From Prevotella sp. UBA3208 (GTDB lineage Bacteria; Bacteroidota; Bacteroidia; Bacteroidales; Bacteroidaceae): a DNA stretch of 5,629 bases. This document shows positions 1-5,629 of this stretch, piece by piece (the stretch's first letter is position 1; every line of letters starts with the position of its first letter). The notes beneath the pieces were generated by a model. The model worked only from the letters and a program-made list of their open reading frames with translations, had not been told where the DNA came from and did not search any database. The position numbers and the translations under genes are program-made. The stretch is from assembly GCA_002363695.1 (NCBI GenBank), contig DEWO01000022.1, positions 1-5,629 on the forward strand, read 5' to 3'.

Positions 1-156
1 TTCCTCCTCTCCGGCGGAATAGGACCCGACGACGCCCGCCGGGTCAGAAAATTCCACCATCCACAGTGCGCCGGCATCGACCTCAACTCCCGTTTCGAGC
101 TCGCCCCCGCCCTCAAAGACATTCAGCAACTCAAACAATTCTTACAACAACTATGA
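1..156 (+). CDS. trpF: Phosphoribosylanthranilate isomerase, C-terminal end (partial)
   Basis: The last 51 codons of trpF are read in frame from the first base to a TGA at 154-156; the 5' part lies left of the window. The enzyme is a TIM-barrel protein that converts N-(5-phosphoribosyl)anthranilate to CdRP in cytoplasmic tryptophan synthesis. The visible part starts with the phosphate-binding loop LLSGGIGPDDA (residues 2-12 of the fragment) and continues with GIDLNSRFE, the counterpart of the GvDvsSgvE motif that closes the barrel in this family, then a final helix ending in FLQQL. The stop overlaps the trpA start as ATGA, so the two are probably translationally coupled. The trpF-then-trpA order fits the usual Bacteroidetes trp operon. 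The assignment rests on two motifs and the neighbour, and is strong for a fragment. Confidence 0.9.
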   Translation, partial: FLLSGGIGPDDARRVRKFHHPQCAGIDLNSRFELAPALKDIQQLKQFLQQL

Positions 157-935
157 ATAAGATAAACCAGTTATTCGCCGAAAGGCCACAGGGAAAGAAA
201 TTCCTCTCCCTCTACTTCTGCGCCGGCTGTCCAACCCTCGACAGCACCACCGACGTCATCCTGACCATGCAACGACGTGGCATAGACTTCATCGAAGTCG
301 GCATACCCTTCAGCGACCCCCTCGCCGACGGACCCGTCATCCAGACCGCCGCCACCAAGGCTCTCCGCAACGGCATGAGCCTGCGGCTGCTCTTCGAACA
401 GCTCAAATCCATACGGGACAAGGTCAAAATCCCGCTCATACTCATGGGATACCTCAACCCCATCCTACACTACGGCATCGAGCCCTTCTGCCAGGCGTGC
501 GCCGAGGCCGGAGTCTCAGGCATGATCATCCCCGACCTGCCGTTCGCCGACTATCTGGCCTCCGTCAAGCCCGTCGCCGACCGCTACGACCTCCGCGTCA
601 TCATGCTCATCACCCCAGAGACCAGCGACGAGCGCATCCGATTCATCGACGACCACACCGACGGCTTCGTCTACATGACCAGCTCAGCCGCAACCACCGG
701 CGCACAGCAATCCTTCGACGAGCAGAAGCAAGCATACTTCCGACGCATCGACGAGATGCAATTGCGCAATCCACGCATGATCGGCTTCGGCATCAGCAAC
801 AAGCAAACGCTGCAGGCCGCCCAAGACAACGCCGCCGGCGCCATCATCGGCTCCAAATTCGTCACCCTGCTCGACGAGTCCGGCGGAAATCCGGACTTGG
901 CGCTGGACTGCCTCTTCGCGGCCTTGGATAAATAA
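153..935 (+). CDS. trpA: Tryptophan synthase alpha chain
   Basis: Encodes 260 residues, close to the usual family length (about 268 in E. coli). TrpA cleaves indole-3-glycerol phosphate to indole and glyceraldehyde 3-phosphate, and passes indole to TrpB inside the alpha2-beta2 complex in the cytoplasm. The catalytic pair is present: Glu48 in DFIEVGIPFSD and Asp59 in PLADGP, matching E. coli Glu49 and Asp60. Further family marks are MGYLNP (98-103), the loop-6 region TSSAATTGAQ (176-185), and the phosphate-binding segments GFGIS (211-215) and IIGS (231-234). I chose the ATG at 153 because it overlaps the trpF stop (ATGA) and gives the family N-terminus. The frame is open upstream to 66, but that part lies inside trpF and has no TrpA similarity. 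There is no clear Shine-Dalgarno sequence, consistent with coupled translation and common in Bacteroidetes. It is the last gene of its operon. Confidence 0.97.
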   Translation: MNKINQLFAERPQGKKFLSLYFCAGCPTLDSTTDVILTMQRRGIDFIEVGIPFSDPLADGPVIQTAATKALRNGMSLRLLFEQLKSIRDKVKIPLILMGYLNPILHYGIEPFCQACAEAGVSGMIIPDLPFADYLASVKPVADRYDLRVIMLITPETSDERIRFIDDHTDGFVYMTSSAATTGAQQSFDEQKQAYFRRIDEMQLRNPRMIGFGISNKQTLQAAQDNAAGAIIGSKFVTLLDESGGNPDLALDCLFAALDK

Positions 936-945
936 TAAAATTTGT

Positions 946-972
946 AAAAGCGTGGGTTATCTCACGCTTTTT
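946..972 (+). terminator. Intrinsic terminator after trpA
   Basis: The arms AAAAGCGTG (946-954) and CACGCTTTT (963-971) are perfect reverse complements and enclose an 8-base loop; the T run extends to 972. The hairpin starts 10 bases after the trpA stop, where the trp operon would be expected to end. The A run before and T run after the GC core make it usable in both directions, although no convergent gene is present. The core has only five non-A/T-tract pairs, so some read-through is possible. Confidence 0.75.
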
Positions 973-975
973 CAT

Positions 976-983
976 TAACTTTG
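976..983 (+). promoter_or_regulatory. Bacteroidetes -7 promoter element for the pectin genes
   Basis: TAACTTTG matches the Bacteroidetes sigma-ABfr -7 consensus TAnnTTTG at all fixed positions. It lies 27 bases before the ATG at 1011, giving a predicted 5' leader of roughly 20 bases. The element begins only four bases after the T run of the trp terminator. No good -33 TTTG is found at the usual spacing (the stretch around 952-956 matches poorly), so basal activity may be low or depend on an activator, as is usual for polysaccharide genes. The promoter call is inferred from the motif and its position. Confidence 0.6.
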
Positions 984-1010
984 CACACAAAACTACTAAA
1001 ACAAGACAAG

Positions 1011-3671
1011 ATGAAAAAGCTATTATCGTTGCTGATGCTGTGCATCGTCGCCCTGACCGCACAGGCCAAGGGCTGGGACGACCAGCAGTACAAACAGATT
1101 GAGCAGAGCATACGCCTGCCACAGTTTGCCGACAAAGTGTATGACATCACCAAGTACGGCGCAAATCCCACCAACACAGCCGCCAAGAACCAAAAGGCCA
1201 TCCAGAAAGCCATCGACAAGTGCTCGAAGAAGGGCGGCGGACGCGTGGTCATTCCCGCCGGACAAAAATTCCTCACAGCTGCCATCCAGCTCAAGTCCGG
1301 CGTCAATCTGGAAGTTCAGGAGGGAGCCGTACTGGAGTTTGCCTTCGAGCCGGAACTCTATCCCATCGTACCCACCCGATGGGAGGGACTGGACTGCTGG
1401 AACCTCTCGCCGCTGATCTACGCCTACCAGGCACGCGACATTGCCGTCACGGGCAAGGGTACCATCGACGGCGGCGGCTCTAACGATACTTGGTGGCCCT
1501 GGTGCGGCAGCAAGAAATTCGGCATGAAGGAGGGAGGCATTGCACAAAACATGGGAGCCCGCGCCCGTCTGCTGAAACAGGCTGAGGACGGCGTGGACAT
1601 GGACCAGCGCCGCTTTGGCCCCCAAGACGGCCTGCGTCCCCAGATGATCAACTTCAACCAGTGCGAGGGCATCCTCATTGAGGACATCACCCTGCTGCGC
1701 TCACCCTTCTGGGTCATCCATCCCCTGCTGTCGAAGGATATTACCGTTCGCGGCGTACACATCAACAACGACGGACCCAACGGCGACGGATGCGACCCGG
1801 AGTCGTGCGACCGCGTACTGATAGAAAACTGCTACTTCAACACCGGCGACGACTGCATAGCCATCAAGAGCGGACGCAACAACGACGGCCGCGAGGGTGG
1901 TCAGGGCCGTTTTGCCGGCACACCGTCGAAGAACATCATCATACGCAACAGCAAGTTCAACAACGGTCACGGTGGCGTGGTCATCGGCTCTGAGATTTCC
2001 GGCGGCTGCCAGAATGTCTATGCCGAGAACTGCGAAATGGACTCTCCCTCGCTGGACCGCGTGTTGCGCATCAAGACCAACTCCTGCCGAGGCGGTGTCA
2101 TCGAAAACATCAACATGCGCAACGTCACCGTCGGACAGTGCAAGGAAGCCGTGCTCAAGATTAATACCGACTACGAGCCGCGCGAGGTTTGCTGCCGCGG
2201 ATTCTACCCCACCGTGCGCAACGTCACCATGGAGAACGTCACCTGCAAGAAGTCTAAGTACGGCGTCATGATAGTCGGCTACGAAGACCCGAAACTGGCT
2301 TATACCGTCAACAACATCACCGTACGCAACTGCCAGTTCGACGGCGTCTACAACAAGCCCATACACCAGATTGGCCTCGCGCAGGACGTGAAGTACGAGA
2401 ATCTCATGATCAACGGCTCCCTCGTACTACAGGAGATGCCGTACAAGCACTATTCCGAGTGGCTCACCTACTCCGAGATGAAGCGCGTGCCACAGTCCTA
2501 CATGCTCGACTTCGCCAAGAAGCCCAAGTGGTCATACGTCATGGGCATTGAACTGGAGGGAATGCTTGATACCTACCTCCGCTACGGCGGACAGGACATC
2601 TACAACTACTGCAAGATGTACACCGACAAGATGATTGACGAACAGGGCAACATCACAGGATATAACATCCTGGACTACAACCTCGACAACATCCGCACCG
2701 GACATTTCGTCACCCGAATGTACCAAAACTGGCCCGAGGCGAAGAACCTGCTGGCCATGAAGACCATGATGAAACAACTGAACGACCAGCCGCGCACCAT
2801 TGCCGACAAGGTCTTCTGGCACAAAGCCATCTACGCCTACCAGGTATGGCTCGACGGCATCTTCATGGGCTTGCCCTTCCGCACGCTGACGGCTCCCATC
2901 ACCCTCTCGGCCAAGGACAAGAAGAAAGGTGCCGTCACCAAAATCTACGACGACGCCGTCAATCAGCTCAAGATAACCTACCAGCGCACCCTAGACCCCA
3001 AGACCGGACTGAACCGCCATGCCTACGACGAGACACGCAAGGCCTTCTGGAGCGACAACGAGACCGGTCTGTCACAGCACTGCTGGGGCCGCGCCCAGGG
3101 CTGGTACTCCATGGCCCTCATCGAGGTGCTCGACGCACTGCCCGAGAACTACGCACGCCGCTCAGAGGTCATCGACCTGCTGCAGAAAGACCTCGACGCC
3201 ATCCTGAAGTGGCAGGACAAGAAGACCGGTCTGTGGTATCAGGTCATGGACAGCCCCGAGCGCGAGAAGAATTATCTGGAGAGCACCTGCTCGTCCATGT
3301 TCACCTATGTCCTGCTGAAGGCTTACCGCAAAGGCTACGTCGGTGAGAAGTACCGCGATGCCGGCATCCGTGCCTACAAGAGCATGATAGAACGGTTCAT
3401 CCAGATTCATCCCGACAAGACCATCTCGCTCACCCAGTGCTGCGAGGTTGCAGGTCTTGGTCCGGCAGTCACCCCTGAGGTCGAGGCAGCCATGAAGCGC
3501 ATCAACCCCAAGGGCAGCGTCAAGGAGAACCGCCGTCGTGACGGCAGCTACGCCTACTATCTCTCGGAGCCCATCCGCTCTAACGATGCCAAGGGCGTAG
3601 GTCCCTTCATCTGGGCCTCCCTCGAAATGGAGATGCTGGGCTACACCACCGAGAACCTGATGAGTAAGTAA
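1011..3671 (+). CDS. Secreted GH28-GH105 fusion: polygalacturonase-type plus unsaturated galacturonyl hydrolase
   Basis: This 886-residue exported protein joins two pectin glycosidases. Residues 1-19 form a signal peptide (MKKLLSLLML core, cleavage likely after AQA19). Residues about 42-470 are a GH28 right-handed beta-helix. Its catalytic acids are Asp259 in NGDGCDPESC (NTD in most GH28) and Asp280-Asp281 in TGDDCIAIKSG, with His320 in GHGG and Arg353/Lys355 in RIK. Coil repeats such as NITVRNC are visible near 435. Residues about 495-880 form a GH105 (alpha/alpha)6 domain, with VMGIELEG (510-517), WLDG carrying the likely catalytic Asp615, CWGRAQGW (691-698), YLEST (755-759) and YYLSEPIRSND...KGVGPF (849-866). 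GH28 hydrolyses alpha-galacturonyl links; GH105 removes 4,5-unsaturated galacturonyl residues left by lyases. The exact substrate (homogalacturonan or rhamnogalacturonan I) is not settled by sequence. It has no sorting tail, so it is probably periplasmic. I chose the ATG at 1011 because it starts the signal peptide; a TTG at 981 lies in the promoter. It likely forms an operon with the lyase 15 bases downstream. Confidence 0.93.
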   Translation: MKKLLSLLMLCIVALTAQAKGWDDQQYKQIEQSIRLPQFADKVYDITKYGANPTNTAAKNQKAIQKAIDKCSKKGGGRVVIPAGQKFLTAAIQLKSGVNLEVQEGAVLEFAFEPELYPIVPTRWEGLDCWNLSPLIYAYQARDIAVTGKGTIDGGGSNDTWWPWCGSKKFGMKEGGIAQNMGARARLLKQAEDGVDMDQRRFGPQDGLRPQMINFNQCEGILIEDITLLRSPFWVIHPLLSKDITVRGVHINNDGPNGDGCDPESCDRVLIENCYFNTGDDCIAIKSGRNNDGREGGQGRFAGTPSKNIIIRNSKFNNGHGGVVIGSEISGGCQNVYAENCEMDSPSLDRVLRIKTNSCRGGVIENINMRNVTVGQCKEAVLKINTDYEPREVCCRGFYPTVRNVTMENVTCKKSKYGVMIVGYEDPKLAYTVNNITVRNCQFDGVYNKPIHQIGLAQDVKYENLMINGSLVLQEMPYKHYSEWLTYSEMKRVPQSYMLDFAKKPKWSYVMGIELEGMLDTYLRYGGQDIYNYCKMYTDKMIDEQGNITGYNILDYNLDNIRTGHFVTRMYQNWPEAKNLLAMKTMMKQLNDQPRTIADKVFWHKAIYAYQVWLDGIFMGLPFRTLTAPITLSAKDKKKGAVTKIYDDAVNQLKITYQRTLDPKTGLNRHAYDETRKAFWSDNETGLSQHCWGRAQGWYSMALIEVLDALPENYARRSEVIDLLQKDLDAILKWQDKKTGLWYQVMDSPEREKNYLESTCSSMFTYVLLKAYRKGYVGEKYRDAGIRAYKSMIERFIQIHPDKTISLTQCCEVAGLGPAVTPEVEAAMKRINPKGSVKENRRRDGSYAYYLSEPIRSNDAKGVGPFIWASLEMEMLGYTTENLMSK

Positions 3672-3673
3672 AT

Positions 3674-3686: not shown

Positions 3687-5069
3687 ATGGAAAAGAATAT
3701 GAAGAAATACGTATCCACCCTATTGCTGGCAGCATTCTCGCTGTCAGCAATAGCTGACGACTTTGACACCAGCAAGCCTTTCGGTTTCTGCACCGTATCT
3801 TCACGCACAGATGCCAGCAGCACCTACAATGTTACAGGTGGCGGATGCTACACCTATCCTGTGCCCGGCGACTTCACGGGCAAAGTAGTCGTGCTGAAGG
3901 CAGAGAAGAATGCCGACGGCACACCCAAGGACATGAAATCTAAAATTAACACCGCTATCCAGAATAACAAAGTTATTATCTTTGATGGGTCTGAGGGTGA
4001 CTTCATCATCAGCAGCACTATTGGTCTGCCCAGTTCGCAAGGCACTGGCAAGACGCTATTAGGCATCAACAATGCCCGTCTATGTACCAAATGGTATGTG
4101 ACGCCCGAAATCAAAGAAGCACTCGATAAAGCTAATGTCAAGAGTAAGAGTTCCAGTTCCGGTACTGGAGGCACGCTGTCCAACGGGGAGTCTGTTGATG
4201 AGGAAAGAGAGTTTGTAACCCGCCAGACCATCATTGACCAGACCGGTGATAAGAGCGAATCTTGCCGGAAGGCAGGCATCTTCTCCTTCAGCAGCTGTAC
4301 GAACGTCATCATCCGCAACATCAACTTCGTAGGTCCCGGTGCCGTGGACGTCGGTGGTGCCGACCTGATTTCTTTTACCGGTTCCAAACACTGCTGGGTT
4401 GACCATTGCCAGTTCACTGACGGAACGGACGGTAACTTCGACATTACCAACGCGTCAGATTTCAATACTGTCAGCTGGTGTACCTTTAGCTATACCGACC
4501 GTTCTTACGACCATCGTAACACCAACCTGATAGGTAGCAGCGACAAAGAGACTGTAGGAACTTTAAACACCACGTTCGCCTTCAACTGGTGGGGAACAGA
4601 CTGCAATCAGCGTATGCCTATGGCTCGCGCGGGAAAGATTCACATGCTGAACAACTACTATACCTGTGTCGGCAATAGTGTTTCCATCAATCCGCGTAAG
4701 AATTCTGAATTCTTGGTGGAAGGCAACTACTTTGCAACAGGCGTCAAGAACATCTACAACCAGTCTGGTGCTGTTGCCGTAACCTGGGCAGACAACAACT
4801 ATGCTGCCAGTGCCAGCAAGCCATCCTCATTCGGGACTACCGTTACCGTTCCCTACTCTTATACCGTAGCAGATGTCAATACGGTTCCTACTGAGGTCAG
4901 CACCAAGGCAGGAAACACGCTGTATAAAGATGCTTCTGGCATCGAGTCTGTGTCAGCAGCCGTCAACACCCCTAAGACTACAGTCTGCTACAACCTCAGA
5001 GGCCAGCGCGTCAGCGAGGACTACAAAGGTATCGTTATAAAGAACGGTAAAAAATATATTCAGAAATAA
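3687..5069 (+). CDS. Secreted pectate lyase, polysaccharide lyase family 1, with C-terminal sorting-type tail
   Basis: This 460-residue protein should cleave polygalacturonate by calcium-dependent beta-elimination, giving 4,5-unsaturated oligogalacturonides. Residues 1-23 are a signal peptide (cleavage after AIA23). The body to about 375 is a PL1 parallel beta-helix: NVIIRNINF (206-214), CWVDHC (236-241), DGNFDITNASD (248-258), LIGSSD (281-286) and NQRMPMARAGKIH (307-319). By alignment with PelC, Asp239, Asp248 and Asp252 are the calcium ligands, Arg309 the catalytic base and Arg314 the substrate-binding arginine. The PelC Lys190 position seems to be Asn278. A long, low-complexity Ser/Gly loop (about 152-170) sits before the helix core. 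Residues about 418-460 (GIESV linker, then YNLRGQRV...KGIVIKNGKKY) form a Bacteroidetes C-terminal tail of the type used for outer-membrane sorting. Its products are substrates for the upstream GH105 domain. GC is lower than in the upstream genes: 24 of 60 at 4081-4140 against 32 of 60 at 2101-2160. A second tail-like stretch follows the stop in the same frame. Confidence 0.93.
   Translation: MEKNMKKYVSTLLLAAFSLSAIADDFDTSKPFGFCTVSSRTDASSTYNVTGGGCYTYPVPGDFTGKVVVLKAEKNADGTPKDMKSKINTAIQNNKVIIFDGSEGDFIISSTIGLPSSQGTGKTLLGINNARLCTKWYVTPEIKEALDKANVKSKSSSSGTGGTLSNGESVDEEREFVTRQTIIDQTGDKSESCRKAGIFSFSSCTNVIIRNINFVGPGAVDVGGADLISFTGSKHCWVDHCQFTDGTDGNFDITNASDFNTVSWCTFSYTDRSYDHRNTNLIGSSDKETVGTLNTTFAFNWWGTDCNQRMPMARAGKIHMLNNYYTCVGNSVSINPRKNSEFLVEGNYFATGVKNIYNQSGAVAVTWADNNYAASASKPSSFGTTVTVPYSYTVADVNTVPTEVSTKAGNTLYKDASGIESVSAAVNTPKTTVCYNLRGQRVSEDYKGIVIKNGKKYIQK
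4938..5066 (+). other. C-terminal sorting-type tail domain of the pectate lyase
   Basis: These are the last 43 residues of the lyase. They start at GIESV, a junction typical of Prevotella and Bacteroides secreted proteins, and end with a compact beta-strand repeat: YNLRGQRV, a short turn, KGIVI, then NGKKYIQK with a basic end. Such tails resemble the C-terminal domains used by the type IX secretion system and are thought to direct export and surface attachment. No secretion gene is in the window, so the route is an inference from the tail pattern. Confidence 0.65.
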
Positions 5070-5210
5070 GTCACGCCTGCTTCTGCCATCACGGCTACCG
5101 AGTACTACGACCTGAACGGACGGCGACTGGCTGAGCCACAGCGGGGCATCAACATCCGCGTGGAGCGCATGGCTAACGGCCAGACCGTGACCTCCAAGGT
5201 CATCAAGTAA
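5070..5210 (+). pseudogene. Remnant of a second secreted-protein C-terminal tail, in frame after the pectate lyase stop
   Basis: From the base after the lyase TAA (5067-5069) the same frame stays open for 46 sense codons, to a TAA at 5208-5210. The translation begins VTPASAITATEYYDLNGRR and continues LAEPQRGINIR, ending in TVTSKVIK. This has the same plan as the lyase tail (Y-x-L-x-G-x-R-V/L, short turn, xGIxI, polar turn, basic end) but is a different sequence, and it fits the YYDLNGRR class of Bacteroidetes tails. There is no plausible start for an independent protein, since the only internal ATG (5169) is near the end. It is also GC-richer than the lyase (38 of 60 at 5101-5160). The best reading is the surviving 3' end of an older gene at this site. 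Read-through producing a two-tailed lyase, or an assembly joint, are less likely alternatives. Confidence 0.7.
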
Positions 5211-5253
5211 CAGCCTGGGGTGAACAACCCTCCATCGAGATACAACAGCAAAC

Positions 5254-5298
5254 AGGGGAGGTGCCACGATTTAACCAATCAGTGAGCACCTCCCCTTT
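5254..5298. terminator. Strong stacked hairpin between convergent genes, probable bidirectional terminator
   Basis: An 11-bp perfect stem (AGGGGAGGTGC at 5254-5264 with GCACCTCCCCT at 5286-5296) continues, after a bulged A at 5285, into CAC/GTG (5265-5267 with 5282-5284). After a second bulged A at 5281 it continues into GATT/AATC (5268-5271 with 5277-5280), closing on a five-base loop. That makes 18 pairs in all. It lies 43 bases after the remnant stop and 36 bases beyond the end of the minus-strand gene, where a shared terminator is expected. The downstream tract is pyrimidine-rich (CTTTCCTCTTTCC) rather than a clean T run, so termination may be imperfect. Confidence 0.65.
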
Positions 5299-5332
5299 CC
5301 TCTTTCCTCCGAGTTCTCTGGCCTGCCGTTTT

Positions 5333-5629
5333 TTATGGCTGTAGTTGTGAATACTCCTTCACGGCATCGAAGCACGGGCAGGCTTTCAGCGGGTTCAGGT
5401 TGCGGTGGCCTACGATGAGGGCGCGGGGGTAGCGCTCCTTCAGTGCCTTCAGCAGCCGCCTGAGCGCTTCCTTCTGTGCCTCGGTGCGCGTGTCAGCGGG
5501 TTGACCGCGGATGTCCAGCCCGCCCTCGTAGCACACGCCTATCGAATGGGCGTTGTGGTTCTGGCAGTGGGCGCCGACCATGTACTCCGGCCGTCCCGTC
5601 TCAATCTGTCCGTCACGACGGACCACGTA
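5333..5629 (-). CDS. N-acetylmuramoyl-L-alanine amidase, T7 lysozyme-like (partial)
   Basis: The 98 C-terminal residues are visible; the start lies beyond the right edge and the stop is TAA at 5335-5333. Amidase_2/PGRP-fold enzymes cut the bond between N-acetylmuramic acid and L-alanine in peptidoglycan, using zinc. Visible marks are RRDGQIETGRP (fragment residues 4-14), VGAHCQNHNAHSIGVCYEGG (18-37), DTRTEAQ (46-52) and GHRNLNPLKACPCFDA (74-89). By alignment with T7 lysozyme, His75 and Cys84 are zinc ligands (T7 His122 and Cys130) and Lys82 matches the catalytic Lys128. The first zinc histidine and the conserved tyrosine would be off the window. A GTG at 5626-5624 is in frame but falls inside the fold, so it is not the start. 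Small amidases of this type are frequent in Bacteroidales chromosomes, sometimes phage-derived. It runs convergent to the pectin genes and shows no link to them. Confidence 0.9.
   Translation of the reverse strand, partial: YVVRRDGQIETGRPEYMVGAHCQNHNAHSIGVCYEGGLDIRGQPADTRTEAQKEALRRLLKALKERYPRALIVGHRNLNPLKACPCFDAVKEYSQLQP

What the first reader, a model, noticed from the sequence alone, without database searches (positions are those of the whole stretch)
5067..5210. Two different C-terminal sorting tails in tandem, in the same frame, separated by one stop codon
The pectate lyase ends with a complete tail (YNLRGQRV...KGIVIKNGKKYIQK) and TAA. The very next codon starts another open stretch, in the same frame, that encodes a second complete tail of the same class (EYYDLNGRR...RGINIR...SKVIK) and then TAA. 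The two differ in sequence and in base composition. About 16 of 25 bases match between the tail cores starting at 4988 and 5105, so they are related but not a recent duplication. Possible readings: (a) an incoming lyase gene replaced an older gene and left its 3' tail behind; (b) tails behave as exchangeable cassettes; (c) occasional read-through makes a two-tailed lyase. I favour (a).
Basis: partly seen in the sequence, partly recalled or inferred. Interest (0 to 1): 0.7.

Follow-up and report, generated by a model that had tools for sequence, protein, structure and literature searches.

The report
Leftover tail of a lost enzyme
Just after the stop codon of a pectin-degrading enzyme gene in a Prevotella-like bacterium sits the last 40-odd codons of a different pectin-degrading enzyme whose body is gone; a related genome still has that second enzyme whole at the same spot, so this is a small gene fossil and not a new kind of signal.

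Summary
Observation confirmed: the lyase (3687-5069) ends in one short tail and TAA; 5070-5210 continues in frame with a second, different tail. That tail is a relic. In the orthologous locus of relative G095 (trpA to GH28-GH88 89% identical DNA, tail 2 to amidase 87%) the slot holds an intact 581-aa pectate lyase ("gene 2") ending in tail 2. Homology starts sharply at 5080 (first 43 bases identical), 10 bases after TAA. Tail 2 ends gene 2 in 10 of 13 strong carriers with DNA, a lyase in 3. The relic lacks the cleavage-site motif, so is not quite complete. It has diverged so little that it is young or still constrained. The six lyases at least 78% identical end in tail 1-type tails, one (99%) at the same codon. 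Reading (a) is right in its core (remnant of another gene), but "an incoming lyase replaced it" cannot be separated from deletion of a downstream gene 2: G370 has trpA, GH28-GH88, lyase+tail 1, gene 2+tail 2. Ordinary process, well resolved; modest interest.

The parts
153..935 (+). trpA, tryptophan synthase alpha; left syntenic flank shared with G095
   Evidence: Pfam PF00290 4e-71; window 52-3672 is 89% identical DNA to G095
1011..3671 (+). GH28-GH88 two-domain pectin enzyme; homology to the G095 locus ends right at its stop codon (about 3672)
   Evidence: Pfam PF00295, PF07470; BLASTN 52-3672
3687..5069 (+). pectate lyase (PF00544) with a signal-peptide-like start and its own C-terminal tail 1; stop TAA 5067-5069
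   Evidence: 99% identical P0001 ends at the same codon
4935..5066 (+). tail 1: short T9SS-type C-terminal tail (SGI... YNLRGQRV...KGIVIKNGKKYIQK)
   Evidence: small strands predicted at residues 434-459; motifs compared by eye with PMC11969387
5070..5079 (+). 10 bases between the stop and the start of homology to gene 2; origin unknown (spacer or altered linker)
   Evidence: BLASTN alignment to G095 starts at 5080; R538 and T539, invariant in 29 gene 2 proteins, are absent
5080..5210 (+). tail 2 relic: last 42 codons plus stop of the lost gene 2 (or of a gene with the same tail)
   Evidence: first 43 bases identical to the 3' end of intact G095 gene 2, 87% over 5080-5536
5254..5296 (+). hairpin downstream of the relic, probable transcription terminator, stem kept in G095 (by eye)
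   Evidence: fold -41.7 kcal/mol for 5205-5332, z -3.3; G095 alignment; against it, the terminator pattern scan found none in 4900-5400
5333..5629 (-). N-acetylmuramoyl-L-alanine amidase (cut by the window's end); right syntenic flank
   Evidence: Pfam PF01510 8e-13; match to G095 through 5536

Best explanation
The second tail is the 3' stump of another secreted pectate lyase gene (gene 2) that stood last in this pectin cluster. Its body (about 1.6 kb) is gone and only its last 42 codons, stop and 3' flank with hairpin remain, right behind the stop codon of the lyase that now ends the cluster. Shown: an intact gene 2 with this very tail sits at the orthologous place in G095 with the same sequence downstream. 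Inferred: the stump is not translated as part of a protein and is transcribed as 3' untranslated sequence of the lyase. How the body was lost is open: deletion from a lyase/gene 2 tandem (my estimate 55%), replacement of the resident gene by a lyase that brought its own tail and stop (35%), other (10%).
For: Orthologous locus G095: window 52-3672 and 5080-5536 align at 89% and 87%, and between them G095 has gene 2 ending in tail 2 where the window has the lyase with tail 1. Tail 2 is close to single-copy: 12 strong hits (E below 1e-15) in 11 genomes, two of them in G116, all in open frames of 558-609 aa, while tail 1-type tails number 9-59 per genome in 6 genomes. Of 13 strong tail 2 genes with DNA, 10 are gene 2 (one with CBM77), 2 lyase-CBM77, 1 lyase. 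The tandem trpA, GH28, GH88, lyase+tail 1, gene 2+tail 2 exists in L147; lyase then gene 2 on the same strand in 15 of 54 non-window lyase entries, taken from 54 selected loci. G095 gene 2 is a pectate lyase by PDB 9buj_A (4.5e-58). The stop recurs in P0001 (99% identical, 6 residues differ by eye), and P0001-P0006 (78-99% identical) end in tail 1-type tails.
Against: The relic has not decayed: no frameshift or stop, 7 synonymous and 3 nonsynonymous differences from G095 in 42 codons, where about 24 nonsynonymous changes would be expected on the window's branch had it been neutral since the split. So it is young, recently transferred, or still under some constraint. The junction itself is seen only in this window. 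P0017, with the same first 44 residues as the window lyase, carries CBM77 and tail 2, so the lost body may have been a lyase-CBM77 and not gene 2.
Confidence: 0.88

Rival explanations
1. Replacement: an incoming lyase with tail 1 and stop was recombined into a slot that held gene 2 (or lyase-CBM77) and left the resident's tail behind. This is a sub-case of the best explanation, so the odds overlap.
For: The closest relative found, G095, has only gene 2 in the slot. P0017 shares the first 44 residues with the window lyase (44 of 44) but has a 67% identical body, CBM77 and tail 2, as if bodies had been swapped behind a shared start. The GC3 gap between lyase (0.59) and GH88 (0.83) in the window is the third largest of 33 loci that hold both (read off).
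Against: Relatives carry both genes in tandem, so one deletion suffices. The lyase is poorer in GC3 than GH88 in 30 of 32 other loci (first lyase copy of each), and G095 gene 2 is as poor (0.59), so composition does not mark an arrival by itself.
Confidence: 0.33
2. Tails are cassettes: tail 2 or tail 1 was inserted as a module next to the other.
For: P0002 and the window lyase are 96% identical in the body but 60% in the tail; P0090 (lyase) and P0179 (gene 2) share an identical 46-aa tail, as do P0121 and P0122 with 47% identical bodies.
Against: Here tail 2 comes with its own downstream sequence, hairpin and amidase, as in G095. Fourfold sites give no sign that tails travel apart from bodies: pooled identity 0.379 in tails and 0.379 in bodies of 13 genes.
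Confidence: 0.05
3. Read-through of TAA makes a two-tailed lyase, or the relic is otherwise still used, which would explain its lack of decay.
For: Frame open; low nonsynonymous change; last 36 residues 35 of 36 identical to the working tail of P0132.
Against: None of the six lyases at least 78% identical (454-460 aa) is longer than the tail 1 end (the list shows the best 120 of 1292). TAA is usually the least leaky stop (general knowledge, not tested). The relic lacks the cleavage-site motif, and has no in-frame ATG, GTG or TTG before the GTG at 5160 (by eye).
Confidence: 0.04
4. Assembly misjoin between two strains' alleles.
For: No genome is held for the window, so a metagenome source is likely (inference); the junction is seen once; proteins with different bodies and tail 2, or with the same start and another end, exist.
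Against: The bases before 5080 do not resemble the G095 sequence in front of tail 2, so no shared word at the junction is apparent. The lyase end is confirmed by P0001, the downstream part by G095.
Confidence: 0.05

Closest known systems
Short C-terminal domains (CTDs) of type IX secretion cargo, Prevotella intermedia (PMC11969387)
   Same: Length, Tyr...Gly plus basic motif B, Gly-x-x-Ile motif D, basic motif E near the end, PT/GI-like cleavage motif in tail 1 (SGI) and in gene 2 (TTGIS/TTAIS); cargo with pectin-lyase-fold domains is reported there
   Different: Tail 1 has KGIVI (GxV) where the paper reports GxY or GxN; the relic tail 2 has GIN-I (GxN) but no cleavage motif and is no protein's C-terminus. 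No cleavage or secretion is shown for any tail here
3' gene remnants left by deletion or replacement in bacterial genomes (general knowledge, recalled)
   Same: Truncated end of a gene whose intact ortholog is present at the same place in a relative
   Different: The stump is short, in frame with and right behind another gene's stop, and not decayed
Por_Secre_tail TIGR04183 (canonical T9SS type A sorting domain)
   Same: Same functional class by inference
   Different: The lyase and the 46-residue tail 2 match no tail model in Pfam or NCBIfam at E up to 1; in 4 relatives the TIGR04183 matches lie on other contigs than this locus

Membership tests
3' gene remnant | intact ortholog with the same sequence at the same place in a relative | tested here: met
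   G095
3' gene remnant | no signal peptide and no catalytic body in the remnant | tested here: met
   46-codon open stretch, first in-frame ATG/GTG/TTG is GTG at 5160
3' gene remnant | relaxed or absent selection (decay) | tested here: not met
   7 synonymous, 3 nonsynonymous differences in 42 codons; compatible with a recent event
T9SS short CTD, tail 1 | at the C-terminus of a protein with an N-terminal signal peptide | tested here: met
   MKKYVSTLLLAAFSLSAIA start judged by eye, no signal-peptide program run; tail ends the protein
[quoted passage not shown]
   SGI, YNLRGQRV and NGKK present, motif D reads GIVI instead of GxY/GxN; compared by eye
T9SS short CTD, tail 1 | three-stranded sheet | tested here: inconclusive
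   small strands at 434-459 with pLDDT about 59-74
T9SS short CTD, tail 1 | a T9SS in the organism | tested here: inconclusive
   SprA TIGR04189 in 8 of 8 relatives; the window's own genome is not held
T9SS short CTD, tail 2 relic | cleavage-site motif and being a protein's C-terminus | tested here: not met
   motif missing, stop in front
T9SS short CTD, both tails | cleavage and surface attachment | not testable with these tools
   needs mass spectrometry

The most novel reading that the evidence does not exclude
The last slot of this pectin cluster is an exchange site: enzyme bodies are swapped or deleted while the resident tail 2 and its 3' flank stay, so that gene 2, gene 2-CBM77, lyase-CBM77 and lyase alone all end in the same tail; the window caught a case in which the new body kept its own stop and left the resident tail as a standing, still intact reserve.
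Probability: 0.25. Interest if true: 0.6.

Novelty: new member of a known kind. Interest (0 to 1): 0.4.

Why it matters
It shows, with an orthologous before-state in hand, how a gene is lost down to its secretion tail in a pectin cluster, and that the end gene of this cluster varies between related species while its tail type is often kept. If the tail proves to be a fixed anchor for changing enzyme bodies, it would be a simple route by which Prevotella re-equip a cluster. As it stands it mainly warns that a tail-like open stretch behind a stop codon may be a fossil and not a signal.

Tried and rejected
Window's own genome: not held. Plasmid collection: no match. IMG/VR: no relative. A second DNA search for the 3' flank (window 5040-5629) in 378 relatives of G095: 49 matched, but only G095 matched across tail 2 and into the downstream part; G225, G005, G116 and G215 matched in the tail alone, the other listed matches lie in the amidase. 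Idea that the lyase's low GC3 proves an arrival: dropped as proof, since the lyase is poorer than GH88 in 30 of 32 other loci, though the window's gap is among the three largest. Idea that the tail travels apart from its body: tested on 13 tail 2 genes, pooled fourfold identity 0.379 in tail and 0.379 in body; 4 pairs had p below 0.1 (smallest 0.049, uncorrected). Idea that post-stop tails are common: in 128 loci plus the window (some loci overlap) 136 tail-bearing segments, of which 4 are short and not at an edge: the window; L027 and L112, where the enzyme runs in another frame; L096 (G147, near a contig edge, stop in front, what ends there does not look like a tail). A further short frame with a tail in L169 is also a frame change at the end of the lyase. 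No second case of tail, stop and a second tail in frame was seen in these. Structures: gene 2's tail has low confidence (pLDDT 30-57), so no statement on its fold. Paper searches on tail exchange, short CTDs in Prevotella, pectin loci and gene remnants listed no title or abstract start on post-stop second tails; I saw the outline, passages and section 3.5 of PMC11969387, otherwise listings only.

Full report
What is there. The window holds trpA (153-935), a GH28-GH88 enzyme (1011-3671), a pectate lyase of family PF00544 (3687-5069) and, on the other strand, an amidase (5333-5629). The lyase ends in a short tail (tail 1) and TAA. From 5070 the same frame reads on for 46 codons as a second tail (tail 2) to TAA at 5208-5210. 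Both tails belong to one broad class: their profiles align with probability 90.8 and E 1.2e-6.

What tail 2 is. A pattern scan of 84,980 species genomes with the lyase gave 41 loci. In 6 of them tail 2 recurs at 65-93% identity, each time as the C-terminus of an intact open frame in the cluster: in L002, L004, L005 and L007 the gene after the lyase (gene 2), in L001 and L003 the lyase itself, with a CBM77 domain between. Searching 397 relatives of G001 with window DNA 3687-5330 brought up G095 with 85% identity over window 5080-5330. Its locus is the ortholog: window 52-3672 matches at 89% and 5080-5536 at 87%, and between the two G095 has gene 2 (581 aa from its ATG; pectate lyase by PDB 9buj_A, 4.5e-58) directly behind GH28-GH88, ending in tail 2. 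The first 43 bases of the match, from 5080 on, are identical. Upstream of 5080 the match stops; two residues that never vary in the 29 aligned gene 2 proteins (R538, T539) and the T-[GA]-I cleavage motif are absent. So the window keeps the last 42 codons, stop and 3' flank of that gene, 10 bases behind the lyase's stop. A hairpin at 5254-5296 (not called by the pattern scan) lies behind the relic, so the relic should be transcribed as part of the lyase's 3' untranslated region (inference).

Specificity. A model of tail 2 run on 11 genomes gives 12 hits with E below 1e-15, one per genome and two in G116, all in open frames of 558-609 aa; 6 weaker hits lie elsewhere. One of the two in G116 (L164) shows no GH28-GH88 in the stretch fetched. 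Tail 1-type tails number 9 to 59 per genome in 6 genomes. Of 398 genomes searched with tail 2 itself, 42 matched at E up to 1e-8. Of the 238 proteins listed by the two protein searches, 122 carry a tail 2-like end (at least 28 of 46 residues): 107 on gene 2, 10 on gene 2-CBM77, 4 on the lyase, 1 on lyase-CBM77; sampling was by tail 2 and by lyase, so these are not population frequencies.

Deletion or replacement. Relatives show both genes in tandem: L147 (G370) has trpA, GH28, GH88, lyase+tail 1, gene 2+tail 2, and lyase-then-gene 2 occurs in 15 of 54 non-window lyase entries from the 54 loci put into that count, out of 184 loci fetched by then. From there one deletion of gene 2's body gives the window, and loss of the lyase gives G095. 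Against that, the closest relative has no lyase in the slot, and protein P0017 has the same first 44 residues as the window lyase (44 of 44) but a 67% identical body, CBM77 and tail 2. P0117 and P0005 look alike in the same way (95% of 43 positions, body 68%); three further pairs that passed this filter (among P0102, P0105, P0107) have bodies of 73-79% and are less telling. The pattern suggests bodies being swapped behind a shared start, which would fit replacement. I cannot decide: the DNA behind P0001-P0006 and P0017 was not reached (metagenome scans were capped at 0). L001, L003 and L182, where a lyase carries tail 2 itself, may be further outcomes of the same kind of loss, with in-frame fusion (inference).

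Age. Between window and G095, dS is 0.52 for GH28-GH88, 0.90 for trpA and 0.54 for the amidase piece (its dN is 0.19, much higher than the others); tail 2 has dS 0.26 and dN 0.03 (7 synonymous, 3 nonsynonymous in 42 codons). Had tail 2 been free of constraint since the split, about 24 nonsynonymous changes would be expected on the window's branch alone, taking half the GH28-GH88 dS as the rate. At the 3 differing sites the window's residues also occur in working tails of other proteins, so none is clearly a change in the window (by eye). The relic is therefore young against that split, was refreshed by transfer, or is still constrained. The fourfold-site difference by itself is not strong (17 of 21 identical against 258 of 379).

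Function. Tail 1 and gene 2's tail resemble the short C-terminal signals of type IX secretion cargo described in Prevotella intermedia (PMC11969387; outline, passages and section 3.5 seen): 40-55 residues, PT/GI-like cleavage site, Tyr...Gly motif, Gly-x-[YN]-Ile motif, basic end. SprA is in 8 of 8 relatives tested. The tails are not hit by Pfam or NCBIfam models at E up to 1. Sorting by these tails is inferred, not shown. The relic lacks the cleavage motif and follows a stop, so I see no working role for it as it stands.

Results that cut the other way. Orphan or out-of-frame tails exist elsewhere at low frequency, so tail relics as such are not unique; none seen repeats the tail-stop-tail arrangement, though L188 could not be judged because its contig ends. 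Identical tails on different bodies (P0090 and P0179; P0121 and P0122) suggest exchange, yet fourfold sites of 13 tail 2 genes show no difference between tail and body. The junction is seen in one sequence only.

Verdict. Observation confirmed; the object is a short, fresh 3' remnant of a neighbouring or former pectate lyase gene.

Noticed in passing
window 4900-5066 compared with P0002: The lyase body is 96% identical to P0002 over 340 positions but the tail only 60% over 35, so tail 1 itself may have been exchanged.
   Followed up: partly
window 3699-3830 compared with P0017: First 44 residues identical, body 67%: a mosaic at the start of the lyase.
   Followed up: partly
L157 6069-6170 (oriented along the lyase; also in L112) and L169 5453-5542 (oriented along the lyase): Lyases whose tail lies in another frame than the core: frameshift or assembly error just before the tail.
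   Followed up: partly
L185 2850-2912 after reverse complement (G095 C30 23089-23151): Orphan tail in a 36-codon open stretch with no gene visible in the three frames of that strand over the 1.2 kb in front.
   Followed up: no
L187 2084-2182 (G370 C161): A gene that looks broken over several frames but whose last 102 codons, tail included, are open.
   Followed up: no
L188 98-214 after reverse complement (G147 C12): A tail 2-like stretch in frame right behind a stop, near a contig edge; what ends at that stop cannot be read.
   Followed up: partly
L001 4810-6012 (-): A second, tailless lyase copy stands inverted directly behind the lyase-CBM77-tail 2 gene.
   Followed up: no
L004, L005, L007 around 6209: Lyases without a tail directly in front of gene 2 with tail 2.
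   Followed up: no
window 5333-5629 (-): The amidase has many similar copies in relatives; G095 has another one (C45) 91% identical over 288 bases.
   Followed up: no
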